NCBI GenBank assembly: GCA_017616555.1
Contig: JAFZXZ010000032.1
Location: forward strand, 393,962 to 457,961
DNA length: 64,000 bases
Reading direction: 5' to 3'
Source of the DNA: a bacterium
GTDB taxonomy: Bacteria > Auribacterota > UBA3054
In this document: positions 15,080-22,028 of the stretch, piece after piece
Numbering within the stretch: position 1 is the stretch's first letter
How the letters are laid out: the number at the start of each line of letters is the position of its first letter
Translations under genes and position numbers: made by a program
The notes under the pieces: model-generated
Told to the model about the DNA's origin: nothing
The model's input: only the letters and a program-made list of their open reading frames with translations
The model's database searches: none

Positions 15080-15921
15080 TGCTGTATATCGTCGCCACTC
15101 CCTTAGGCAATCTCGAAGACCTCACCCCGAGGGCCTTGAGGATCTTCCGGGAAGTTGACGCCATCGCGGCGGAGGACACACGCCACACCGTCCAGCTTCT
15201 CAGTCACTTCCAAATACAGAAGCCTCTCTTTGCTTTCCATCAGCACAATGAAAGGGAAGCGACGGAACAGCTCATTGAAAAGCTCACCAAGGGACAAAAC
15301 ATCGCCCTCGTCTCCGACGCCGGCTATCCCTGCGTCTCCGATGCCGGAAGCTATCTTACGCAGACCCTCCGCGACAGAAACATTCCCTACACCTGCTTAC
15401 CTGGCGCCTGCGCCGTCGAGACCGCTCTCGTCCTCTCCGGATTGCCAACGGAAACTTACACTTTCCTAGGCTTCCTCCCAAGGGAAGGCAAAGAAAGAGA
15501 GCAAGCTTTCCAAAAAATAGAAAACGCAAAAGAAACAACGATCGTCTTCGAAAGCCCTTTGAGAATCATAAAGCTCATAAAAGATCTCAAGCCCTACCTC
15601 AAGGAAAGAAAGATATCTCTCTTGAGGGAAATGACCAAGATCCACGAGGAATGCGTAAGAGGGACTATAGATGAAGTCCTAACTGAACTTGAATCCAGAG
15701 CTGAAATAAAAGGGGAGTGCGTCCTTGCAATAGAAGGCGGAAAGGAAGAGAAAATTGAAAACAACTCCCAAGATCTCACAATTGACGACGCTGTCAGAAA
15801 AGTTCTTCTTCTCAAAAAGAAAGCCGATCTCTCCCTCTCCCAGTCCGCTCAGGCCGTCTCCTTAATAACCGGCTACAACAGGAAAGAGCTCTACAAAAAA
15901 GCCCTGGACCTGGAATCATAA
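15079..15921 (+). CDS. rsmI: 16S rRNA (cytidine-1402-2'-O)-methyltransferase
   Basis: SAM-dependent tetrapyrrole-methylase-fold enzyme that modifies C1402 in the decoding centre of 16S rRNA. At 280 residues it is normal. Motifs are YIVATPLGNLEDLTPRAL at the N terminus, DAIAAEDTRHT, FHQHNE, LVSDAGYPCVSDAG, PGACAVETALVLSGLPT and FLGFLPREGKER. The start overlaps the polymerase stop (TGATG), and the stop overlaps the next gene (TAATG). The 3' part is richer in A than its neighbours. Confidence 0.95.
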   Translation: MLYIVATPLGNLEDLTPRALRIFREVDAIAAEDTRHTVQLLSHFQIQKPLFAFHQHNEREATEQLIEKLTKGQNIALVSDAGYPCVSDAGSYLTQTLRDRNIPYTCLPGACAVETALVLSGLPTETYTFLGFLPREGKEREQAFQKIENAKETTIVFESPLRIIKLIKDLKPYLKERKISLLREMTKIHEECVRGTIDEVLTELESRAEIKGECVLAIEGGKEEKIENNSQDLTIDDAVRKVLLLKKKADLSLSQSAQAVSLITGYNRKELYKKALDLES

Positions 15922-17108
15922 TGAACACCCCCGAAACAGACAAGATCTACCGGCCCGAAACCGGCGTAGTCATAAGCATAGGCGAAGACGGCCTTGCCAC
16001 CATCAGTCTTTCCCGCACCAAAGCCTGCGAATTCTGCGGCCAGTGCTCCGTTTCGAAAGAAGACGGCATGATGACTTTGAAAGCGGAAACGAATCCCAAA
16101 GAAGGCTTAAAACCCGGCGATCAAGTAGCTGTGATCAAAAAGCCCGCCGCCCAGATAAAGGCCATGCTTCTCCTTCTGCTTTCTCCGCTCTTAGGGCTTG
16201 TTTTAGGCCTTTTCCTGGGCTTCTTTCTTTTCCCACAGCAGGAAACAAAGCAAGCGCTCTTTTCCATAGCGGGCGCGATCATAGCCGTCTTTATTTCCTT
16301 TGTCATCATAAGGATAAAAAAATGGCACAAAGGCGCCGGTCTTACAATCACGAAACTCACGGTCCTCATTCTTTCCTCGGCTCTATTTCTTTCCTCTTGC
16401 AAAGTAGAAAAGGTGAGGGTTACTGATTCCAAGCCTCAATCATTCTCCGTTGGATTGAAAACAAGCAACGACGACTTTTTCCCATCCGACGCCAAGTTCC
16501 TGGAAAGCACAGAAACTTCCCGTCTATACGCTTCAATTCCAGACAGCATTTTTAAAAGGATGGAGGGCAAATCTTTTCCAAAGGACTGCCAAGTAAAAAA
16601 AGAAGACCTCAGATACGTAAGAGTTAAGCATTACGGTTTTGACGGGCAAGTGCACGCGGGCGAATTCGTGGCTGACAAGAGGGTGGCCTCCAGTCTTGTT
16701 TTCATTTTTGATAAGCTTTTCGAGCAAAAATACCAGATCGAAAAGATAAAGCTCATCGATGATTACGACGCTAAAGATGAGGATTCAATGAAAGATAACA
16801 ACACGAGCGCTTTCTGCTACAGGACCATCGCAGGCAAAGACAAGCTCTCCAAGCACGCCCTTGGCTTAGCCATCGACATCAACCCACTCTACAACCCCTG
16901 CGTCTCCTACAACAAGGATGGTTCTATTAAAAAGGTGGAGCCCGAAGAGGGAAGGCCTTACATTGAAAGAGATGCTTCCGACCCCAGGCGCATTACAAAA
17001 GACAGCCCAATATATAAGCTCTTCACAGAAAACGGCTTCATCTGGGGCGGCGACTGGAACAATCCCAAGGACTACCAGCACTTCGAATACAAGCTCGATC
17101 ATGAATAA
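15921..17108 (+). CDS. RseC/MucC-like protein fused to an M15-family peptidase
   Basis: Two unrelated modules in one 395-residue frame. Residues 1-135 look like RseC/MucC: a Cys cluster (C36, C39, C42) in a small domain, then two membrane helices (about 81-103 and 112-130). This family is linked to SoxR reduction and sigma-E signalling. Residues 146-160 form a third hydrophobic stretch ending in LFLSSC, a good lipobox with Cys160. The rest matches M15 (VanY/YcdD-like) peptidases: SKHALGLAIDIN gives H312 and D319, and YQHFEY gives H387 as zinc ligands, which suggests D-Ala-D-Ala or L,D-peptide cleavage. No in-frame ATG separates the modules. See the findings on fusion and a possible slippery run. 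Confidence 0.75.
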   Translation: MNTPETDKIYRPETGVVISIGEDGLATISLSRTKACEFCGQCSVSKEDGMMTLKAETNPKEGLKPGDQVAVIKKPAAQIKAMLLLLLSPLLGLVLGLFLGFFLFPQQETKQALFSIAGAIIAVFISFVIIRIKKWHKGAGLTITKLTVLILSSALFLSSCKVEKVRVTDSKPQSFSVGLKTSNDDFFPSDAKFLESTETSRLYASIPDSIFKRMEGKSFPKDCQVKKEDLRYVRVKHYGFDGQVHAGEFVADKRVASSLVFIFDKLFEQKYQIEKIKLIDDYDAKDEDSMKDNNTSAFCYRTIAGKDKLSKHALGLAIDINPLYNPCVSYNKDGSIKKVEPEEGRPYIERDASDPRRITKDSPIYKLFTENGFIWGGDWNNPKDYQHFEYKLDHE

Positions 17109-17357: not shown

Positions 17358-19793
17358 ATGAAAAAAGTTCTCTTTTTACTCTTAACCGTTGTCTGCGCCT
17401 CAGCCTGGGCGATAAATTACGACGCTGAATACGACCTGTCCAGCGTTAGTGACGATATTAATATTCAGGGAGCCGGCGTTTATCTAATTGAGGGAGAAAC
17501 TGCTAAATATCACATTGTGGTTGACTTAAAAGAAAATGATGATGTTGTATTGGTATTAAAAAACATCTCTATGGATCTAAGTGACGACAAATCTCCGATA
17601 AGCATTATGAAAGGAAATGTCACGATAGTCATGGACGGCAAACCGAGCACGATCAAGCAAAATGATGGGAAAAATGGTCTCGCAGCTATAACGGTTTTTG
17701 CGGATGCAGAATTAACATTTAATGATTACAAAGATATTGAAAGCACGGAGCTCCATGTTTCTTCCAGCGGCGAAGGCGCGGCTATTGGCGGAAAAGGCAG
17801 CGATCCTGCGGGTGAAGTAAATTTTTATGCTGGCACGGTCGTTGCCAGGGGCGGAATATCTGGCCCTGCTATCGGCGGCGTAAATAACTATGTAAAGACC
17901 TTAAGGATCGGCAGCAAAGCCAAGGTCTATGCCTATGCCGGAAGCGACTGCGAAGCGCCGACTGTCGGCGGAGCTATAAGCGGCACATTCAATTCTACTC
18001 CAACGATCCAAATTTCCGGTGGATATCTTTATGCGGAATCTTCTAGATCGTTTGCTATTAGTTTAGTTGGAAATATGGATGAATATCGTCCAGAGATTAG
18101 GATCACGGACGGGACTGTCGAAGCGAAAGCTGGTGTTGATTATCCTGCCATAGGGGGAGATTGTTTGGTGTTTGTTGACGGCGGTTCGATAAAGGTGCAT
18201 GGTGGCGGTCAAGCAATTTACTGTGAAGGCCATTGTTTACCTACAAATATTTCGGGCATACCGTTATGGGAATGCAGAGTGCCAGCCGGAGTAGTCAATC
18301 ATAGCACCGATAGCAGCTTTACCATGACAAGGAATGGCGCGGCCTACAATTATTCCTACACCGGTAAAGGCCACAAGGCAGATAGTGATTTGAATGGCAC
18401 AGTTGAGTGGGACGACACGCTGTACTTCTATCTACCGTTTGACGAAGGCACTTACGTTGCTAACAGAAATAATGGAGACGCGACGTTCACTTGTACTCCT
18501 CTTGAGGGTCCCGAGATTTTTGATAAGTTTTTCCCTTGTTACTTTAAAAAAGACCTTAGCGGCAGCATCGAGCTTGATTTGAGCCGTGGCTCCATATTTT
18601 TATCAGCGGACGGCGTAAACGGCTGGGATGTGAGCGGAAATCGCGTCGAAGATGTCGAATATTCAAATTACATTATTGTTCAGAGCGCCTCTACGCACAA
18701 TAACATAGCTGTTAAATCGGGCGCTCATACAATTACTCTCCAGGGGATTGATTTTCGTGGTGAAACAGGAGTTTCCGGTTTTGATATTAATGACAATTGT
18801 TCTGTTGATCTGGTTTTGTCAGGTGAAAACATTCTCAGAGCTGAAGGAGCGCCTTGCATTAGCGTGGTAGGAGACTCTGTTCTGACCATAAGTGAAGCGA
18901 ACGGCGGGGGAAATTTGACTTGCGGATCCGATAGTACGGCAATCGGTGGAAACGGTGACTCTTCTGGCCAGATAATAATAAATAGCGGAACCATAAATTG
19001 CTCCGGTGCGACTGGTATTGGCGGCGGAGCGTGCGGGACAGGATATGTCGTCATTAACGGAGGAGAAATAATAGCAAGAGGCTCTTCAGGCGCTGGTATT
19101 GGCGGCGGAGAACAAGGAGCAGGCTATGTTAAAATTTTCGGCGGCTCAATAGAAGCTTACGGAAACACGGGTTCAGGAATTGGCGGAGGACAGCGAGAAT
19201 ATGGGAATATTATGATATATAACGGCGTTGTCAAGGCTTACTCCGAATCCGGCGCAGGCATAGGATGCGGCGTTAATTCATCACAAGACACTCGAGGCGG
19301 CATATGGATCTATGGCGGTACTGTTGATGCCAGAACAGAGTCTGGCGTCGGCTTAGGCGGCAACAGCATAGGCACTATGGTTTGTAAAGGCGGTTCCGTA
19401 TATACTTTCAAAGCGGAAGGACCTGTTTGCCCTTCTATTTCCAATCGTAATGGAGCGTCTCATTTTTCAAGTGCTTATTACAGCGTGATCCCTGATGCCA
19501 TGGCGCCCGTAACCTCCATTTTTGCCGCTGGCGACGGGGAAGTGACTTTCACCGCTAACAAAAAGAACGATTCGTCGTTCAGTTATTCCTACACCGGCGA
19601 AGGTCATGAAGGTGGAGACAACAACCTGTATTTCTATCTGCCGACCGGTGACTATACGATCACTGGTACGAATGGAAAGACATTTGGCGGCAGCGTGACG
19701 AGTGCTGGCGGAACATTCACGCTGGTTCCTGAACCGACTATGTTCGCCCTTCTGGCCATTGCCGCGCTTTGCCTTGGCAGAAAGAGGGCCTAA
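17358..19793 (+). CDS. PEP-CTERM surface protein with carbohydrate-binding/beta-helix-like repeats
   Basis: Secreted 811-residue protein. The signal peptide is residues 1-18 (cleavage near SAWA-IN). The C-terminal sorting signal is VPEP (PEP at 791-793), a hydrophobic helix and the basic end GRKRA. The body repeats short glycine-rich turns (AIGGKGSDPAGEV, GIGGGACGTGYV, GIGGGEQGAGYV, GIGGGQREYG), each followed by a beta-strand-like stretch, as in parallel beta-helix or Cthe_2159-like polysaccharide-binding proteins. Two copies of a short YSYTG(K/E)GH module lie near residues 330 and 750. An AGGGGAG ribosome site precedes the ATG. The exosortase would anchor or release it at the surface, which is inference. 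Its codon use is more AT-rich than the housekeeping genes. Confidence 0.85.
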   Translation: MKKVLFLLLTVVCASAWAINYDAEYDLSSVSDDINIQGAGVYLIEGETAKYHIVVDLKENDDVVLVLKNISMDLSDDKSPISIMKGNVTIVMDGKPSTIKQNDGKNGLAAITVFADAELTFNDYKDIESTELHVSSSGEGAAIGGKGSDPAGEVNFYAGTVVARGGISGPAIGGVNNYVKTLRIGSKAKVYAYAGSDCEAPTVGGAISGTFNSTPTIQISGGYLYAESSRSFAISLVGNMDEYRPEIRITDGTVEAKAGVDYPAIGGDCLVFVDGGSIKVHGGGQAIYCEGHCLPTNISGIPLWECRVPAGVVNHSTDSSFTMTRNGAAYNYSYTGKGHKADSDLNGTVEWDDTLYFYLPFDEGTYVANRNNGDATFTCTPLEGPEIFDKFFPCYFKKDLSGSIELDLSRGSIFLSADGVNGWDVSGNRVEDVEYSNYIIVQSASTHNNIAVKSGAHTITLQGIDFRGETGVSGFDINDNCSVDLVLSGENILRAEGAPCISVVGDSVLTISEANGGGNLTCGSDSTAIGGNGDSSGQIIINSGTINCSGATGIGGGACGTGYVVINGGEIIARGSSGAGIGGGEQGAGYVKIFGGSIEAYGNTGSGIGGGQREYGNIMIYNGVVKAYSESGAGIGCGVNSSQDTRGGIWIYGGTVDARTESGVGLGGNSIGTMVCKGGSVYTFKAEGPVCPSISNRNGASHFSSAYYSVIPDAMAPVTSIFAAGDGEVTFTANKKNDSSFSYSYTGEGHEGGDNNLYFYLPTGDYTITGTNGKTFGGSVTSAGGTFTLVPEPTMFALLAIAALCLGRKRA

Positions 19794-19915: not shown

Positions 19916-19982
19916 AAAACGGGACACAACCGTTAGAAAAAACCTTTACTAGCGGAAACAGGCTTTTAAGCCCCGCCGAAAG

Positions 19983-20016
19983 ACTTCCCTGGGAGAGATC
20001 CTGGGGAAGTTTTTTT
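19983..20016 (+). terminator. Intrinsic terminator with GAGA tetraloop (copy 1)
   Basis: Continuous 12-base-pair stem (19983-19994 with 19999-20010, two G-U pairs) capped by GAGA and followed by TTTTTT. It ends the PEP-CTERM/small-peptide transcript. A copy differing at one base lies at 21995-22028. Confidence 0.9.
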
Positions 20017-20118: not shown

Positions 20119-21960
20119 ATGCGCAGAATAATTTTTTTACTGGCCTTCCTGGCCTGCGGCGTGACTTTAGCGGATGAACTTTGGTCCGGCACTTTTGAAT
20201 TTTCCGGAGCGGCTGTTGATTCCTCTGAAACGACAGTCATTTATCCCCTTGGCGGTTACCAGAGCAATTCTGCCACTCCCTTGCCTTACAACAGCGGCTG
20301 GGCCAAGGGCACGCCTGAATCCATTGAAATTTTTTATATAAACGAAGAAAATGACAATTTGAGAGGCGTGATCTATTATCAGGAATCCACTTCGCCGTCC
20401 CAGGGCGTCGCGTATTGGGACTATATTGAAACTGATCCGGCTGATATTCCGAGGAACGACACTTATACCATCTATGAATCCGTTCTGAGCGACTATGAAG
20501 AGATCCTGCTGTATCGTTCCGTCACGATCGTTCCGGAACCGGCTGCCGCTTTGCTTTTAGTTTTAGCGGGAGCTTTTTTCATGAGAAAAAGAATAAAAGG
20601 ATTTTTAGTGTGTTTGCTTGCTCTTACTGCCGTTAGCGCTTCCTTAGCGGAAGTGACTTCCGTCAGCTGCTTCCAAGCTCAGCCCTTCAATAACAAGGTC
20701 GTCATCAACTATACGCTTTCCAAAACGACTGAAAAGGTCACGCCGGTCTTTACGGTTTCTTTTGCCGGCAAATACGACAACGGCGAACCCTTCAATCTTG
20801 AAGACAACGGCACCATTACCGGCGACGGCGCGGCTGGCATCGTGCTGGGGGAAGGCAGCAAGCAAGCAGTTTGGACTCCTGGCGGCGGCGTGTCCGAAGT
20901 CTCCACTTCCACAATGCAGGTGAAAGTGGCGGCTGTGGATGTCACCGGGGAGGCAACCTATTTGAAACTTGATCTTTCCAGCAATAAAATGACTAACAGT
21001 GCTCTCGGTCCTGAAAATCCCAATTACGATCCCGAAGATCCTGAAAGCGGCAGATTTTTGTCCATAAATTGCAAGACTTCCGAAATATGGTTCAGAAGAG
21101 TCGAGCCGGGCACCTTCACTATGGGAAGCGATGTGAATGAAGTTGGCAGACCAACGGATAAAAGTGTTATAGATTATGAGACCGGAGGAAGGCACATTGT
21201 CAACAGTGAAACCGAGCATTCAGTGACCATTACCAAGGCTTTTTATCTTGCTGTTTTTGAAACAACGCAGGACCAGTACGAGACTATTTTTTGCGAAAAT
21301 CCTTCAAGATGGCGTTCCAATCTTGCCGAGGGCGAAACCCAGGAGGCGAGGCCTGTTGATTATGTTTCATACAATGATATCAGAGGAGGAAACGAAGGAG
21401 GGACATGGCCCGAAAAAACCGATTACCGGGTGGACGACGACAGTTTCTTCGGAAGAATTCGTTTTCTTACCGGCGACGGCATTATTTTTGATCTGCCCAC
21501 CGAGGCTCAATGGGAAATGGCCTGCCGCGATAAAGGCGACGGAAGCTATGTGGGCAGCAGCAGATGGAGTGATGATTCCGTTTTCACCATGACTGCAAGC
21601 GCAAAGAATACGGACGATAACCTTGAAAATGTTGCCTGGTACGCAAATAACACTAAAGTATCTTCTACTTATCCTTCCCACGAGGTTGGCCGTAAAAAAC
21701 CCAATGGGATCGGCCTTTATGATATGCTCGGCAATACCATGGAATGGTGCCTGGACTGGTCGAAAACGTATATTGTGCCGTATGATTTGGATCCGGTCGG
21801 CCCGCCCTATGAGGAAAGCAACGAAGGCCAGAGCCGCAGGAAACGCGGAGGCTCCGCCCAACAAAATGCCGCTAATTGCCGCATAGCTGAAAGGATGAAC
21901 GGAAGGCCTAATGACAAAAATCAAAACTGCGGTTTCCGCATTGCTATTCAGACAAAATAA
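20119..21960 (+). CDS. PEP-CTERM protein fused in frame to a secreted FGE/SUMF1-domain protein
   Basis: A 613-residue frame holding what look like two complete secreted proteins. Residues 1-19 are a signal peptide, 20-135 a small unknown domain, and 138-158 a full PEP-CTERM sorting signal (VPEP, PEP at 139-141, hydrophobic helix, MRKR). The MRKR is at once the start of a second signal peptide (155-177, ending ASLA). Next come a beta-rich domain (about 178-290) and a formylglycine-generating-enzyme/SUMF1-type domain (about 310-613) with FRRVEPGTFTMGSD, FETTQDQYE, DLPTEAQWEMACR, NGIGLYDMLGNTMEW and CGFRIA. SUMF1-like domains of this type include non-catalytic and iron or ergothioneine-type members, so the activity is unknown. 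An internal ATG at 20581 has its own ribosome site. Confidence 0.85.
   Translation: MRRIIFLLAFLACGVTLADELWSGTFEFSGAAVDSSETTVIYPLGGYQSNSATPLPYNSGWAKGTPESIEIFYINEENDNLRGVIYYQESTSPSQGVAYWDYIETDPADIPRNDTYTIYESVLSDYEEILLYRSVTIVPEPAAALLLVLAGAFFMRKRIKGFLVCLLALTAVSASLAEVTSVSCFQAQPFNNKVVINYTLSKTTEKVTPVFTVSFAGKYDNGEPFNLEDNGTITGDGAAGIVLGEGSKQAVWTPGGGVSEVSTSTMQVKVAAVDVTGEATYLKLDLSSNKMTNSALGPENPNYDPEDPESGRFLSINCKTSEIWFRRVEPGTFTMGSDVNEVGRPTDKSVIDYETGGRHIVNSETEHSVTITKAFYLAVFETTQDQYETIFCENPSRWRSNLAEGETQEARPVDYVSYNDIRGGNEGGTWPEKTDYRVDDDSFFGRIRFLTGDGIIFDLPTEAQWEMACRDKGDGSYVGSSRWSDDSVFTMTASAKNTDDNLENVAWYANNTKVSSTYPSHEVGRKKPNGIGLYDMLGNTMEWCLDWSKTYIVPYDLDPVGPPYEESNEGQSRRKRGGSAQQNAANCRIAERMNGRPNDKNQNCGFRIAIQTK
20568..20583 (+). 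promoter_or_regulatory. Internal ribosome site and start for the FGE-domain half
   Basis: GGGAG (20568-20572), eight bases, ATG (20581-20583), in frame with the upstream PEP-CTERM protein. Initiation here would give a 459-residue FGE-domain protein with a normal signal peptide starting MRKRIKGFLVCLLALTAV. By comparison, the ATG at 20119 has no visible ribosome site. Confidence 0.5.
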
Positions 21961-21994
21961 TAATTAGAGTTTGGGCAATAATTGAAATCAATTG

Positions 21995-22028
21995 ACTTCC
22001 CTGGGAGAGATCCCGGGGAAGTTTTTTT
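21995..22028 (+). terminator. Intrinsic terminator with GAGA tetraloop (copy 2)
   Basis: ACTTCCCTGGGA (21995-22006), loop GAGA, TCCCGGGGAAGT (22011-22022), then T. Twelve base pairs. Nearly identical to the terminator at 19983-20016. It ends the PEP-CTERM/FGE transcript. Confidence 0.9.

What the first reader, a model, noticed from the sequence alone, without database searches (positions are those of the whole stretch)
20119..21960. PEP-CTERM protein and FGE-domain protein joined through a shared MRKR: sorting signal running straight into a second signal peptide
The frame contains a full tripartite PEP-CTERM signal (PEP at 139-141, helix, basic MRKR), normally the very end of a protein. Here the basic residues double as the n-region of a complete signal peptide (155-177) for an FGE/SUMF1-type domain. 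If read through, the product would thread out, in and out of the membrane. Exosortase could cut at PEP and signal peptidase at ASLA, releasing two proteins from one chain: a polyprotein logic I have not seen described. The alternative is two genes fused by loss of a stop, with the internal ATG (20581) now used.
Basis: partly seen in the sequence, partly recalled or inferred. Interest (0 to 1): 0.75.

Follow-up and report, generated by a model that had tools for sequence, protein, structure and literature searches.

The report
Two-in-one bacterial surface protein chain
In one bacterial genus known from ruminant guts, 96 gene copies carry a sorting tag that normally ends a protein running straight into a second export signal inside one chain, so each chain is likely cut into two separate surface proteins, although such tags have been described almost only at protein ends.

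Summary
ORF 20119-21960 (613 aa) reads through signal peptide, beta domain, PEP, 14 hydrophobic residues, RKR, second signal peptide (...SLA) and FGE-like domain. A 92%-identical ortholog has no stop either. A junction-only model lists 96 full junctions, all in the genus's 8 genomes, none in 36 other genomes of the phylum. Of 95 read junctions, 92 have Ala at -1 with -2 free. The internal signal peptide has the length and hydrophobicity of ordinary ones. Signal peptidase I is found in 8/8 genomes, exosortase in 7/8. The same genomes hold 29 split homologues ending at the PEP tag; 27 are followed at once by an FGE-type gene with its own signal peptide. The N-domain tree needs at least two fused/split changes. 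A second, unrelated fusion of the same logic (RseC-like protein running into a lipoprotein signal) lies 3 kb upstream. Best reading: a secreted polyprotein, likely cut by signal peptidase after Ala177 and by exosortase at PEP. No cleavage has been shown; internal initiation at 20581 stays possible in the focal gene.

The parts
20119..21960 (+). whole ORF, 613 aa, joined precursor
   Evidence: full-length ortholog 92% without stop; public cluster of 48 members, 613 aa
20119..20172 (+). first signal peptide, residues 1-18 (MRRIIFLLAFLACGVTLA|D)
   Evidence: sequence, cut site by eye; family-wide first signals listed, run length and hydropathy
20173..20532 (+). N-terminal beta-sandwich domain, residues 19-138
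   Evidence: AlphaFold2 pLDDT 83, pTM 0.78; no confident PDB fold match, best E 0.035; 124 ORFs carry it in the fetched regions and window
20533..20541 (+). PEP motif, residues 139-141
   Evidence: TIGR02595 18.1 bits; present in all 95 two-domain ORFs found without requiring it; pooled dN/dS of the six residues ending in PEP 0.037
20542..20583 (+). 14-residue hydrophobic stretch of the PEP tag, residues 142-155
   Evidence: sequence; median 14, range 14-16 in 95 junctions
20584..20598 (+). basic loop RKRIK, residues 156-160: tail of the PEP tag and n-region of the second signal peptide
   Evidence: median 5 residues with 4 R/K in 95 junctions
20599..20649 (+). second (internal) signal peptide core and cleavage region ...SASLA|E, residues 161-177
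   Evidence: Ala at -1 in 92 of 95, -2 free; run length 16 and mean hydropathy 2.3 like stand-alone signal peptides
20568..20583 (+). GGGAG plus ATG (20581): possible internal start of the focal gene
   Evidence: conserved in the ortholog; not a family feature
20650..21040 (+). second beta domain (D2), roughly residues 178-307
   Evidence: AlphaFold2 strands; D2 profile hits in 151 ORFs
21100..21945 (+). FGE/SUMF1-like domain, residues 328-609
   Evidence: PF03781 4e-26; Foldseek top hit 2y3c, Treponema denticola variable protein 1, 1e-17
21994..22023 (+). terminator-like hairpin after the gene
   Evidence: near-identical to the one at 19978-20015
19978..20015 (+). terminator-like hairpin before the gene, between it and the upstream gene
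15921..17108 (+). second example of the logic: RseC/MucC-like membrane protein read straight into a lipoprotein-type signal (LSSC) and an M15 peptidase

Best explanation
The ORF encodes a two-protein precursor in which a PEP-CTERM sorting tag and a second signal peptide share one basic loop, and the exported chain is predicted to be cut into two proteins, likely by signal peptidase I after Ala177 and by exosortase at PEP 139-141. Shown: one open frame; conservation of both signals in the family; the presence of genes for both enzymes; split two-gene versions with the same domain order in the same genomes. Inferred: the first signal peptide starts export; the 14-residue PEP helix and the second signal peptide enter the membrane as a tight hairpin with the RKR loop in the cytoplasm; signal peptidase cuts at SLA|E during export, freeing the FGE-like protein and leaving PEP only 36 residues from a new C-terminus; exosortase then processes the N-domain as an ordinary PEP-CTERM substrate. 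Fusion would fix a 1:1 ratio of two partners that are otherwise made from adjacent genes. It probably arose by loss of the stop between such genes, the upstream basic tail replacing the downstream start and n-region.
For: Ortholog 92% identical with no stop and an independent public cluster. 95 junctions read; 91 of these ORFs have 300 or more residues behind PEP, the rest being cut short. Domain profiles that do not ask for PEP give 95 two-domain ORFs, all with PEP. Public relatives: 63 of 64 carry the internal PEP tag and 61 of those 63 have Ala at -1; the exception P0040 has PES. Ala at -1 in 92 of 95 with -2 free. Internal signal run length 16 and hydropathy 2.3, against 16 and 2.5 for the first signal and 16 and 2.28 for 41 stand-alone FGE-type signals. 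Helix 14 (14-16), loop 5 (3-6) with 4 R/K, no acidic residue in 84 of 95. Pooled dN/dS over 33 pairs: PEP segment 0.037, basic loop 0.15, PEP helix 0.26, internal signal 0.31, first signal 0.37, N, D2 and FGE domains 0.16-0.22. One signal peptidase I gene in each of 8 genomes; one exosortase in 7 of 8, in the window's genome with an EpsI-type C-terminus. 29 split genes all end in a terminal PEP tag and 27 of 29 are followed by a D2/FGE-type gene with a likely start -4 to +30 nt from the stop. N-domain tree: 4 label changes (bootstrap 4-5), at least 2 forced. Parallel RseC-lipoprotein fusion in 5 of 8 genomes, split with an ATGA overlap in the other 3; the window's copy has no ATG/GTG/TTG codon in the 60 codons before its lipobox Cys.
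Against: No cleavage has been observed. The ORF-level PEP tag is not C-terminal, and Haft 2006 suspected long-tailed examples of being non-functional. PF07589 scores below its cut-off. The focal gene has a Shine-Dalgarno-like motif only before the internal ATG, and a promoter-like match (10 of 12) lies inside the first half at 20351, so the second half could be made on its own. The 95 rows used for dN/dS and for the -1/-3 counts were picked with a PEP filter, so their PEP invariance is partly by choice; one search is the test without it. One genome (G004, 83% complete) shows no exosortase. AlphaFold gives no confident structure for 142-175. The ortholog's residues before the cut are F-S-A, a poorer site unless the cut is at VSA three residues earlier. 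The trees have weak deep forks, long branches and no outgroup root. In the four other RseC fusions an in-frame ATG at residue 132 could serve as a start.
Confidence: 0.63

Rival explanations
1. Signal peptidase cuts the chain, but exosortase does not: the N-domain stays anchored by the PEP helix plus the leftover signal hairpin, and only the FGE half is released.
For: The signal peptidase site is conserved; exosortase activity on a tag 36 residues from the new end has not been shown; one genome lacks a detected exosortase.
Against: The PEP segment has the lowest dN/dS (0.037; rows picked with PEP) and PEP is kept in 95 of 95 two-domain ORFs found without requiring it and in 63 of 64 public relatives; 24 of the 30 PEP-tag loci examined in two of these genomes are ordinary terminal ones (77 matches), so an exosortase system is probably in use.
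Confidence: 0.17
2. Two products from one gene by internal initiation: ribosomes start at 20119 and also at ATG 20581 (perhaps also from an internal promoter), so the FGE half is made with its own N-terminal signal peptide.
For: GGGAG lies 8 nt before ATG 20581 in both species, while neither first ATG has a Shine-Dalgarno-like motif; a promoter-like match with 10 of 12 bases lies at 20351-20379 (a region richer in such matches than its shuffles, 9 against 2.5).
Against: 36 of 95 junctions lack any ATG/GTG/TTG codon in PEP+10..+25; start plus motif in 7 of 95 against 3 in a control window; the Leu before the basic run is TTG in only 8 of 59. Any ribosome that starts at 20119 still reads through. 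The window's RseC-lipoprotein fusion has no start-like codon for 60 codons before its lipobox.
Confidence: 0.1
3. Uncleaved two-pass anchor: the two hydrophobic stretches form a permanent membrane hairpin holding both domains outside.
For: Two hydrophobic stretches around a basic loop would insert as a hairpin.
Against: An anchor does not need Ala at -1 in 92 of 95 with a free -2, a constant PEP, or hydrophobic runs of only 14 and 16 residues; the split homologues are separate proteins.
Confidence: 0.09
4. Assembly error or a decaying one-off fusion.
For: The named relatives are metagenome-assembled genomes.
Against: Eight genomes, 96 junctions, purifying selection on both sides of the junction, independent public clusters with up to 114 members.
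Confidence: 0.01

Closest known systems
PEP-CTERM/exosortase sorting (TIGR02595/PF07589 with EpsH-type exosortase, PF09721)
   Same: PEP motif, 14-residue helix, basic cluster, N-terminal signal peptide, exosortase in the genome
   Different: The tag lies in the middle of the chain, with 472 residues after PEP; published tags lie near the C-terminus 'virtually without exception' (Haft 2006, passages read)
Cytochrome b/c1 precursor FbcH of Bradyrhizobium (recalled; not found in the paper library)
   Same: One bacterial gene makes two membrane or exported proteins, separated at an internal signal peptide by signal peptidase
   Different: As recalled, FbcH has no sorting-enzyme tag before the internal signal and no shared basic loop; here both ends of the junction carry a processing signal
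Viral envelope polyproteins (flavivirus, bunyavirus) cut by host signal peptidase after hairpins (recalled; only listings seen)
   Same: Transmembrane hairpin followed by a signal peptidase site between two exported proteins
   Different: Bacterial, with a predicted exosortase cut on the other side; no relation by descent was tested
FGE/SUMF1-like proteins and Treponema denticola variable protein 1 (2y3c)
   Same: PF03781 domain; best fold match
   Different: The Cys five residues before the conserved CR motif is absent in 70 of 70 scorable members, 25 of 95 not scored, so not a canonical formylglycine-generating enzyme; reverse transcriptase found in 1 of 8 genomes only, so no sign of retroelement-driven diversification

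Membership tests
PEP-CTERM sorting signal | PEP motif, hydrophobic helix, basic cluster | tested here: met
   TIGR02595 18.1 bits over cut-off 16; helix 14 residues, basic loop. PF07589 below cut-off
PEP-CTERM sorting signal | located at the extreme C-terminus | tested here: not met
   472 residues follow PEP in the ORF; of 30 PEP-tag loci examined in two genomes, 24 end 19-24 residues after the start of PEP and the other 6 are this family
PEP-CTERM sorting signal | exosortase encoded in the genome | tested here: met
   one PF09721 gene in 7 of 8 genus genomes incl. the window's own; candidate Cys, Arg and His motifs seen by eye (motif knowledge recalled)
PEP-CTERM sorting signal | cleavage by exosortase | not testable with these tools
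   needs proteomics or expression
Sec/SPase I signal peptide (second one) | basic n-region, hydrophobic core, small residues at -3 and -1 | tested here: met
   92 of 95 fit -3/-1 in the alignment
Sec/SPase I signal peptide (second one) | N-terminal position | tested here: not met
   starts about 155 residues into the chain
Formylglycine-generating enzyme | PF03781 fold | tested here: met
Formylglycine-generating enzyme | pair of catalytic cysteines (human C336/C341, recalled numbering) | tested here: not met
   first Cys absent in 70 of 70 scorable; 25 of 95 not scored
Bacterial signal-peptide polyprotein (FbcH type, recalled) | one ORF with two export-type proteins and an internal signal peptide | tested here: met
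Bacterial signal-peptide polyprotein (FbcH type, recalled) | demonstrated cleavage into two proteins | not testable with these tools

The most novel reading that the evidence does not exclude
A bacterial genus makes a whole repertoire of surface protein pairs as polyproteins through a 'stop-and-restart' hairpin: a sorting tag that ends one protein and a signal peptide that starts the next share a single basic loop, and two different membrane proteases cut on either side. Exosortase tags would therefore work inside a chain. The same trick, an upstream basic tail acting as the n-region of an internal signal, arose separately in an RseC-lipoprotein fusion, pointing to a lineage-wide route for turning adjacent genes into polyproteins.
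Probability: 0.55. Interest if true: 0.85.

Novelty: new variant of a known kind. Interest (0 to 1): 0.77.

Why it matters
PEP-CTERM and related C-terminal sorting tags are understood as end-of-protein signals, and long-tailed copies were suspected to be non-functional (Haft 2006). Here internal copies are the rule in a large family and their PEP segment is its most constrained part. If they are processed, the position rule for exosortase falls, and bacteria have a cellular counterpart to viral envelope polyproteins. The family is also a ready experiment: fused and split forms of related pairs coexist in one genome, and 96 natural variants of one junction show what signal peptidase and exosortase may need. 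It also warns annotation pipelines that a sorting tag or a signal peptide may lie inside a gene.

Tried and rejected
Tried and rejected. (1) Sequencing error or a lost stop at 20560-20600: rejected by the ortholog and an independent public cluster. (2) Internal start as the family's rule: rejected by codon and Shine-Dalgarno counts, kept open for the focal gene. (3) Diversity-generating retroelement, because of the fold match to Treponema variable protein 1: reverse transcriptase found in 1 of 8 genomes only. (4) True formylglycine-generating enzyme: first catalytic Cys missing in 70 of 70 scored, 25 not scored. (5) Wider spread: the longer model A2 gave only weak matches (best 1.2e-5) in 6 of 36 genomes outside the genus and the junction model no full match there; rows of both lists are capped. 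The first region search with the focal protein found one public cluster; the second, with a paralogue, found 63. (6) The N-domain fold gave no confident match. (7) The D2+FGE tree (quick method: 5 changes, 3 forced) contains at least one contig-edge fragment labelled split (L124), so I lean on the N-domain tree. (8) Literature: the listings (30 of 39 papers shown; 15 of 34; 20 of 109; 12 of 34; 12 of 28; 8 of 31) showed no paper on an internal PEP-CTERM tag or a PEP-CTERM polyprotein, by title and abstract start; one search found no paper holding its four terms. (9) A simple pattern scan of the window for further internal signals found only the focal junction and missed the RseC case, so it is not sensitive. 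(10) In checking, I withdrew two earlier statements: that two RseC fusions lack any start-like codon (only the window's copy does), and that the three split RseC pairs differ in overlap (all three have ATGA).

Full report
WHAT IS THERE. The frame 20119-21960 is open and encodes 613 residues. It reads: first signal peptide (1-18), a beta domain (19-138), PEP (139-141), fourteen hydrophobic residues, RKR (156-158), a second signal-peptide-like stretch ending SLA177|E178, a second beta domain, and an FGE/SUMF1-like domain (PF03781, 328-609). TIGR02595 scores the PEP tag at 18.1 bits over a cut-off of 16, while PF07589 stays below its own cut-off. The gene lies between two near-identical terminator-like hairpins (19978-20015 and 21994-22023), so it looks like its own transcription unit; promoter-like matches lie before it (20047, 20067) but also inside it (20351, 20324, 20962). 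AlphaFold2 models most of the chain well (mean pLDDT 80, pTM 0.77); the stretches below 50 are the two signal regions (1-3, 6-17 and 142-175) and loops at 300-312 and 348-361.

IT IS A FAMILY. A search of 39 genomes found a 92%-identical ortholog without a stop in another genome of the same genus, and many full-length paralogues of about 40% identity in all seven other genomes of the genus. I fetched 114 stretches, 112 of them around such hits and two around exosortase genes, and read 95 in-frame junctions: G000 5, G001 11, G002 17, G003 12, G004 14, G005 13, G006 10, G007 13. In 91 of them 300 or more residues follow PEP; the others are cut short. Because that list asked for PEP, I repeated the search with profiles of the two domains that do not ask for it. 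This gave 95 ORFs with both domains; one of them was new, one listed junction is cut off at a contig end, and all 95 have PEP. A model of the junction alone, run over 44 genomes of the phylum, lists 96 full-length matches, all in the eight genomes of the genus (5, 11, 17, 13, 14, 13, 10, 13) and none in the other 36, whose best match is partial at 5.6e-7. In the public protein database, 64 relatives (P0002-P0065) gave 63 with the internal tag; the exception has PES. Named relatives of the genus are ruminant-gut MAGs (water buffalo, yak, sheep) titled 'Bacterium isolate RGIG...'.

WHAT IS CONSERVED. The helix is 14 residues (14-16), the basic loop 5 residues (3-6) with four R/K, and 84 of 95 junctions have no acidic residue in the hairpin. 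The signal peptidase position -1 is Ala in 92 of 95 and -3 is small or aliphatic, while -2 is free; Ala makes up 30% of that segment on average. The two alignment gaps at -1 are the focal gene (SLA) and its ortholog (FSA, or VSA three residues earlier); one member (L112) is a real exception. The internal signal's nonpolar run (16, hydropathy 2.3) matches the first signal (16, 2.5) and 41 stand-alone FGE-type signals (16, 2.28). Pooled over 33 independent pairs, dN/dS is 0.037 for the six residues ending in PEP, 0.15 for the basic loop, 0.26 for the PEP helix, 0.31 for the internal signal, 0.37 for the first signal and 0.16-0.22 for the domains; the rows were picked with PEP, so the first figure is partly by choice. 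This is what selection on two working signals would look like.

THE SPLIT FORM. The fetched regions also hold 29 genes with the N-domain and no D2/FGE part. All 29 end in an ordinary terminal PEP tag, and 27 are followed at once by a D2/FGE-type gene whose own signal peptide has a likely start -4 to +30 nt from the stop; the other two (L085, L121) have none within 700 nt. The fused form is therefore the split pair without the stop and spacer. On the N-domain tree the two labels need 4 changes (bootstrap 4-5), at least 2 forced by well supported branches; the quick D2+FGE tree needs 5, at least 3 forced, but contains one mislabelled fragment. Long branches and few columns weaken both, and the root is unknown, so the direction is not settled.

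THE ENZYMES. Signal peptidase I is found once per genome in 8 of 8 (in G001 as two matched pieces of one frame). Exosortase is found once in 7 of 8; the miss is an 83%-complete genome. In the window's genome it has an EpsI-type C-terminal part. Of 30 PEP-tag loci examined in two genomes (of 77 matches), 24 are terminal (19-24 residues from PEP to the end) and 6 internal, all six of this family.

HOW IT MOST LIKELY WORKS. Shown: one frame, both signals conserved, both enzymes' genes present. Inferred: the hairpin inserts with its loop inside; signal peptidase cuts after Ala177 during export; PEP is then 36 residues from a new C-terminus, closer to the ordinary case, and exosortase cuts there. 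The two mature proteins would be those that the split pairs make from two genes, now in a fixed 1:1 ratio. What they do is less clear: the FGE-like domain is nearest in fold to Treponema denticola variable protein 1, lacks the first FGE cysteine in 70 of 70 scorable members, and is probably a binding rather than an oxidising domain.

INTERNAL STARTS. 36 of 95 junctions have no ATG/GTG/TTG codon in PEP+10..+25, and start-plus-motif occurs in 7 of 95 against 3 in a control window. But the focal gene and its ortholog both have GGGAG before ATG 20581 and none before the first ATG. For this gene, a second translation start is possible beside read-through.

A SECOND CASE NEXT DOOR. At 15921-17108 an RseC/MucC-like membrane protein runs straight into a lipoprotein-type signal (LSSC) and an M15 peptidase. 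Five of eight genomes have it fused, with a lipobox-like end in all five (LSSC, LSSC, LCSC, LCSC, LCSC). Three have it split: RseC ends ...KKL with TGA, and the next gene's ATG overlaps that stop as ATGA. One of those three downstream proteins (L294) has a signal without an evident lipobox. The window's own fused copy has no ATG/GTG/TTG codon in the 60 codons before the lipobox Cys, so its lipoprotein part should come only from the long chain; the other four keep an in-frame ATG at residue 132, which could serve as a start. Seven of the 120 listed public clusters carry both domains. The basic tail of the upstream protein again serves as the likely n-region of an internal signal.

WHAT IS KNOWN. 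Haft et al. 2006 (PMC1569441; passages read) state that the tag lies near the C-terminus virtually without exception and that long-tailed examples may be non-functional. Two recent papers still describe these tags as C-terminal (passages of PMC11980579, and PMC12188702). The FbcH precedent for an internal bacterial signal peptide is recalled and was not found in the library. The listings and the empty search showed nothing on internal PEP tags or PEP-CTERM polyproteins; only parts of the matching papers were listed.

VERDICT. A real, conserved and, in the searches made, undescribed architecture; processing is inferred. New variant of a known kind.

Noticed in passing
window 15921-17108; loci L288-L295: RseC/MucC-like membrane protein fused in frame to an M15-peptidase lipoprotein through an internal lipobox-like signal in 5 of 8 genomes; split with an ATGA overlap in the other 3.
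   Followed up: partly
window 19978-20015 and 21994-22023: Two near-identical terminator-like hairpins (CTTCCCTGGGAGAGATCC...) flank the gene; 2 matches in the window against 0.02 expected.
   Followed up: partly
window 17358-19793: The upstream gene is an 811-aa protein with a signal-peptide-like start, weak beta-helix repeat matches and an ordinary terminal PEP tag, all below Pfam/NCBIfam cut-offs.
   Followed up: no
L069, L102, L163: Split pairs in which the second gene's frame opens directly behind the first gene's stop in the same frame, one stop codon away from an open joined frame.
   Followed up: partly
L150 (ORF 1768 aa), L113 (ORF 1444 aa): Very long frames with several D2/FGE-like matches in tandem; L113 begins with a fused junction.
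   Followed up: no
L181:1854-3914:-: The exosortase of the window's genome and an EpsI-type domain are one 686-aa protein.
   Followed up: no
family starts, 95 fused genes: Only 47 of 95 first starts have a Shine-Dalgarno-like motif; the genus may often start translation without one.
   Followed up: no
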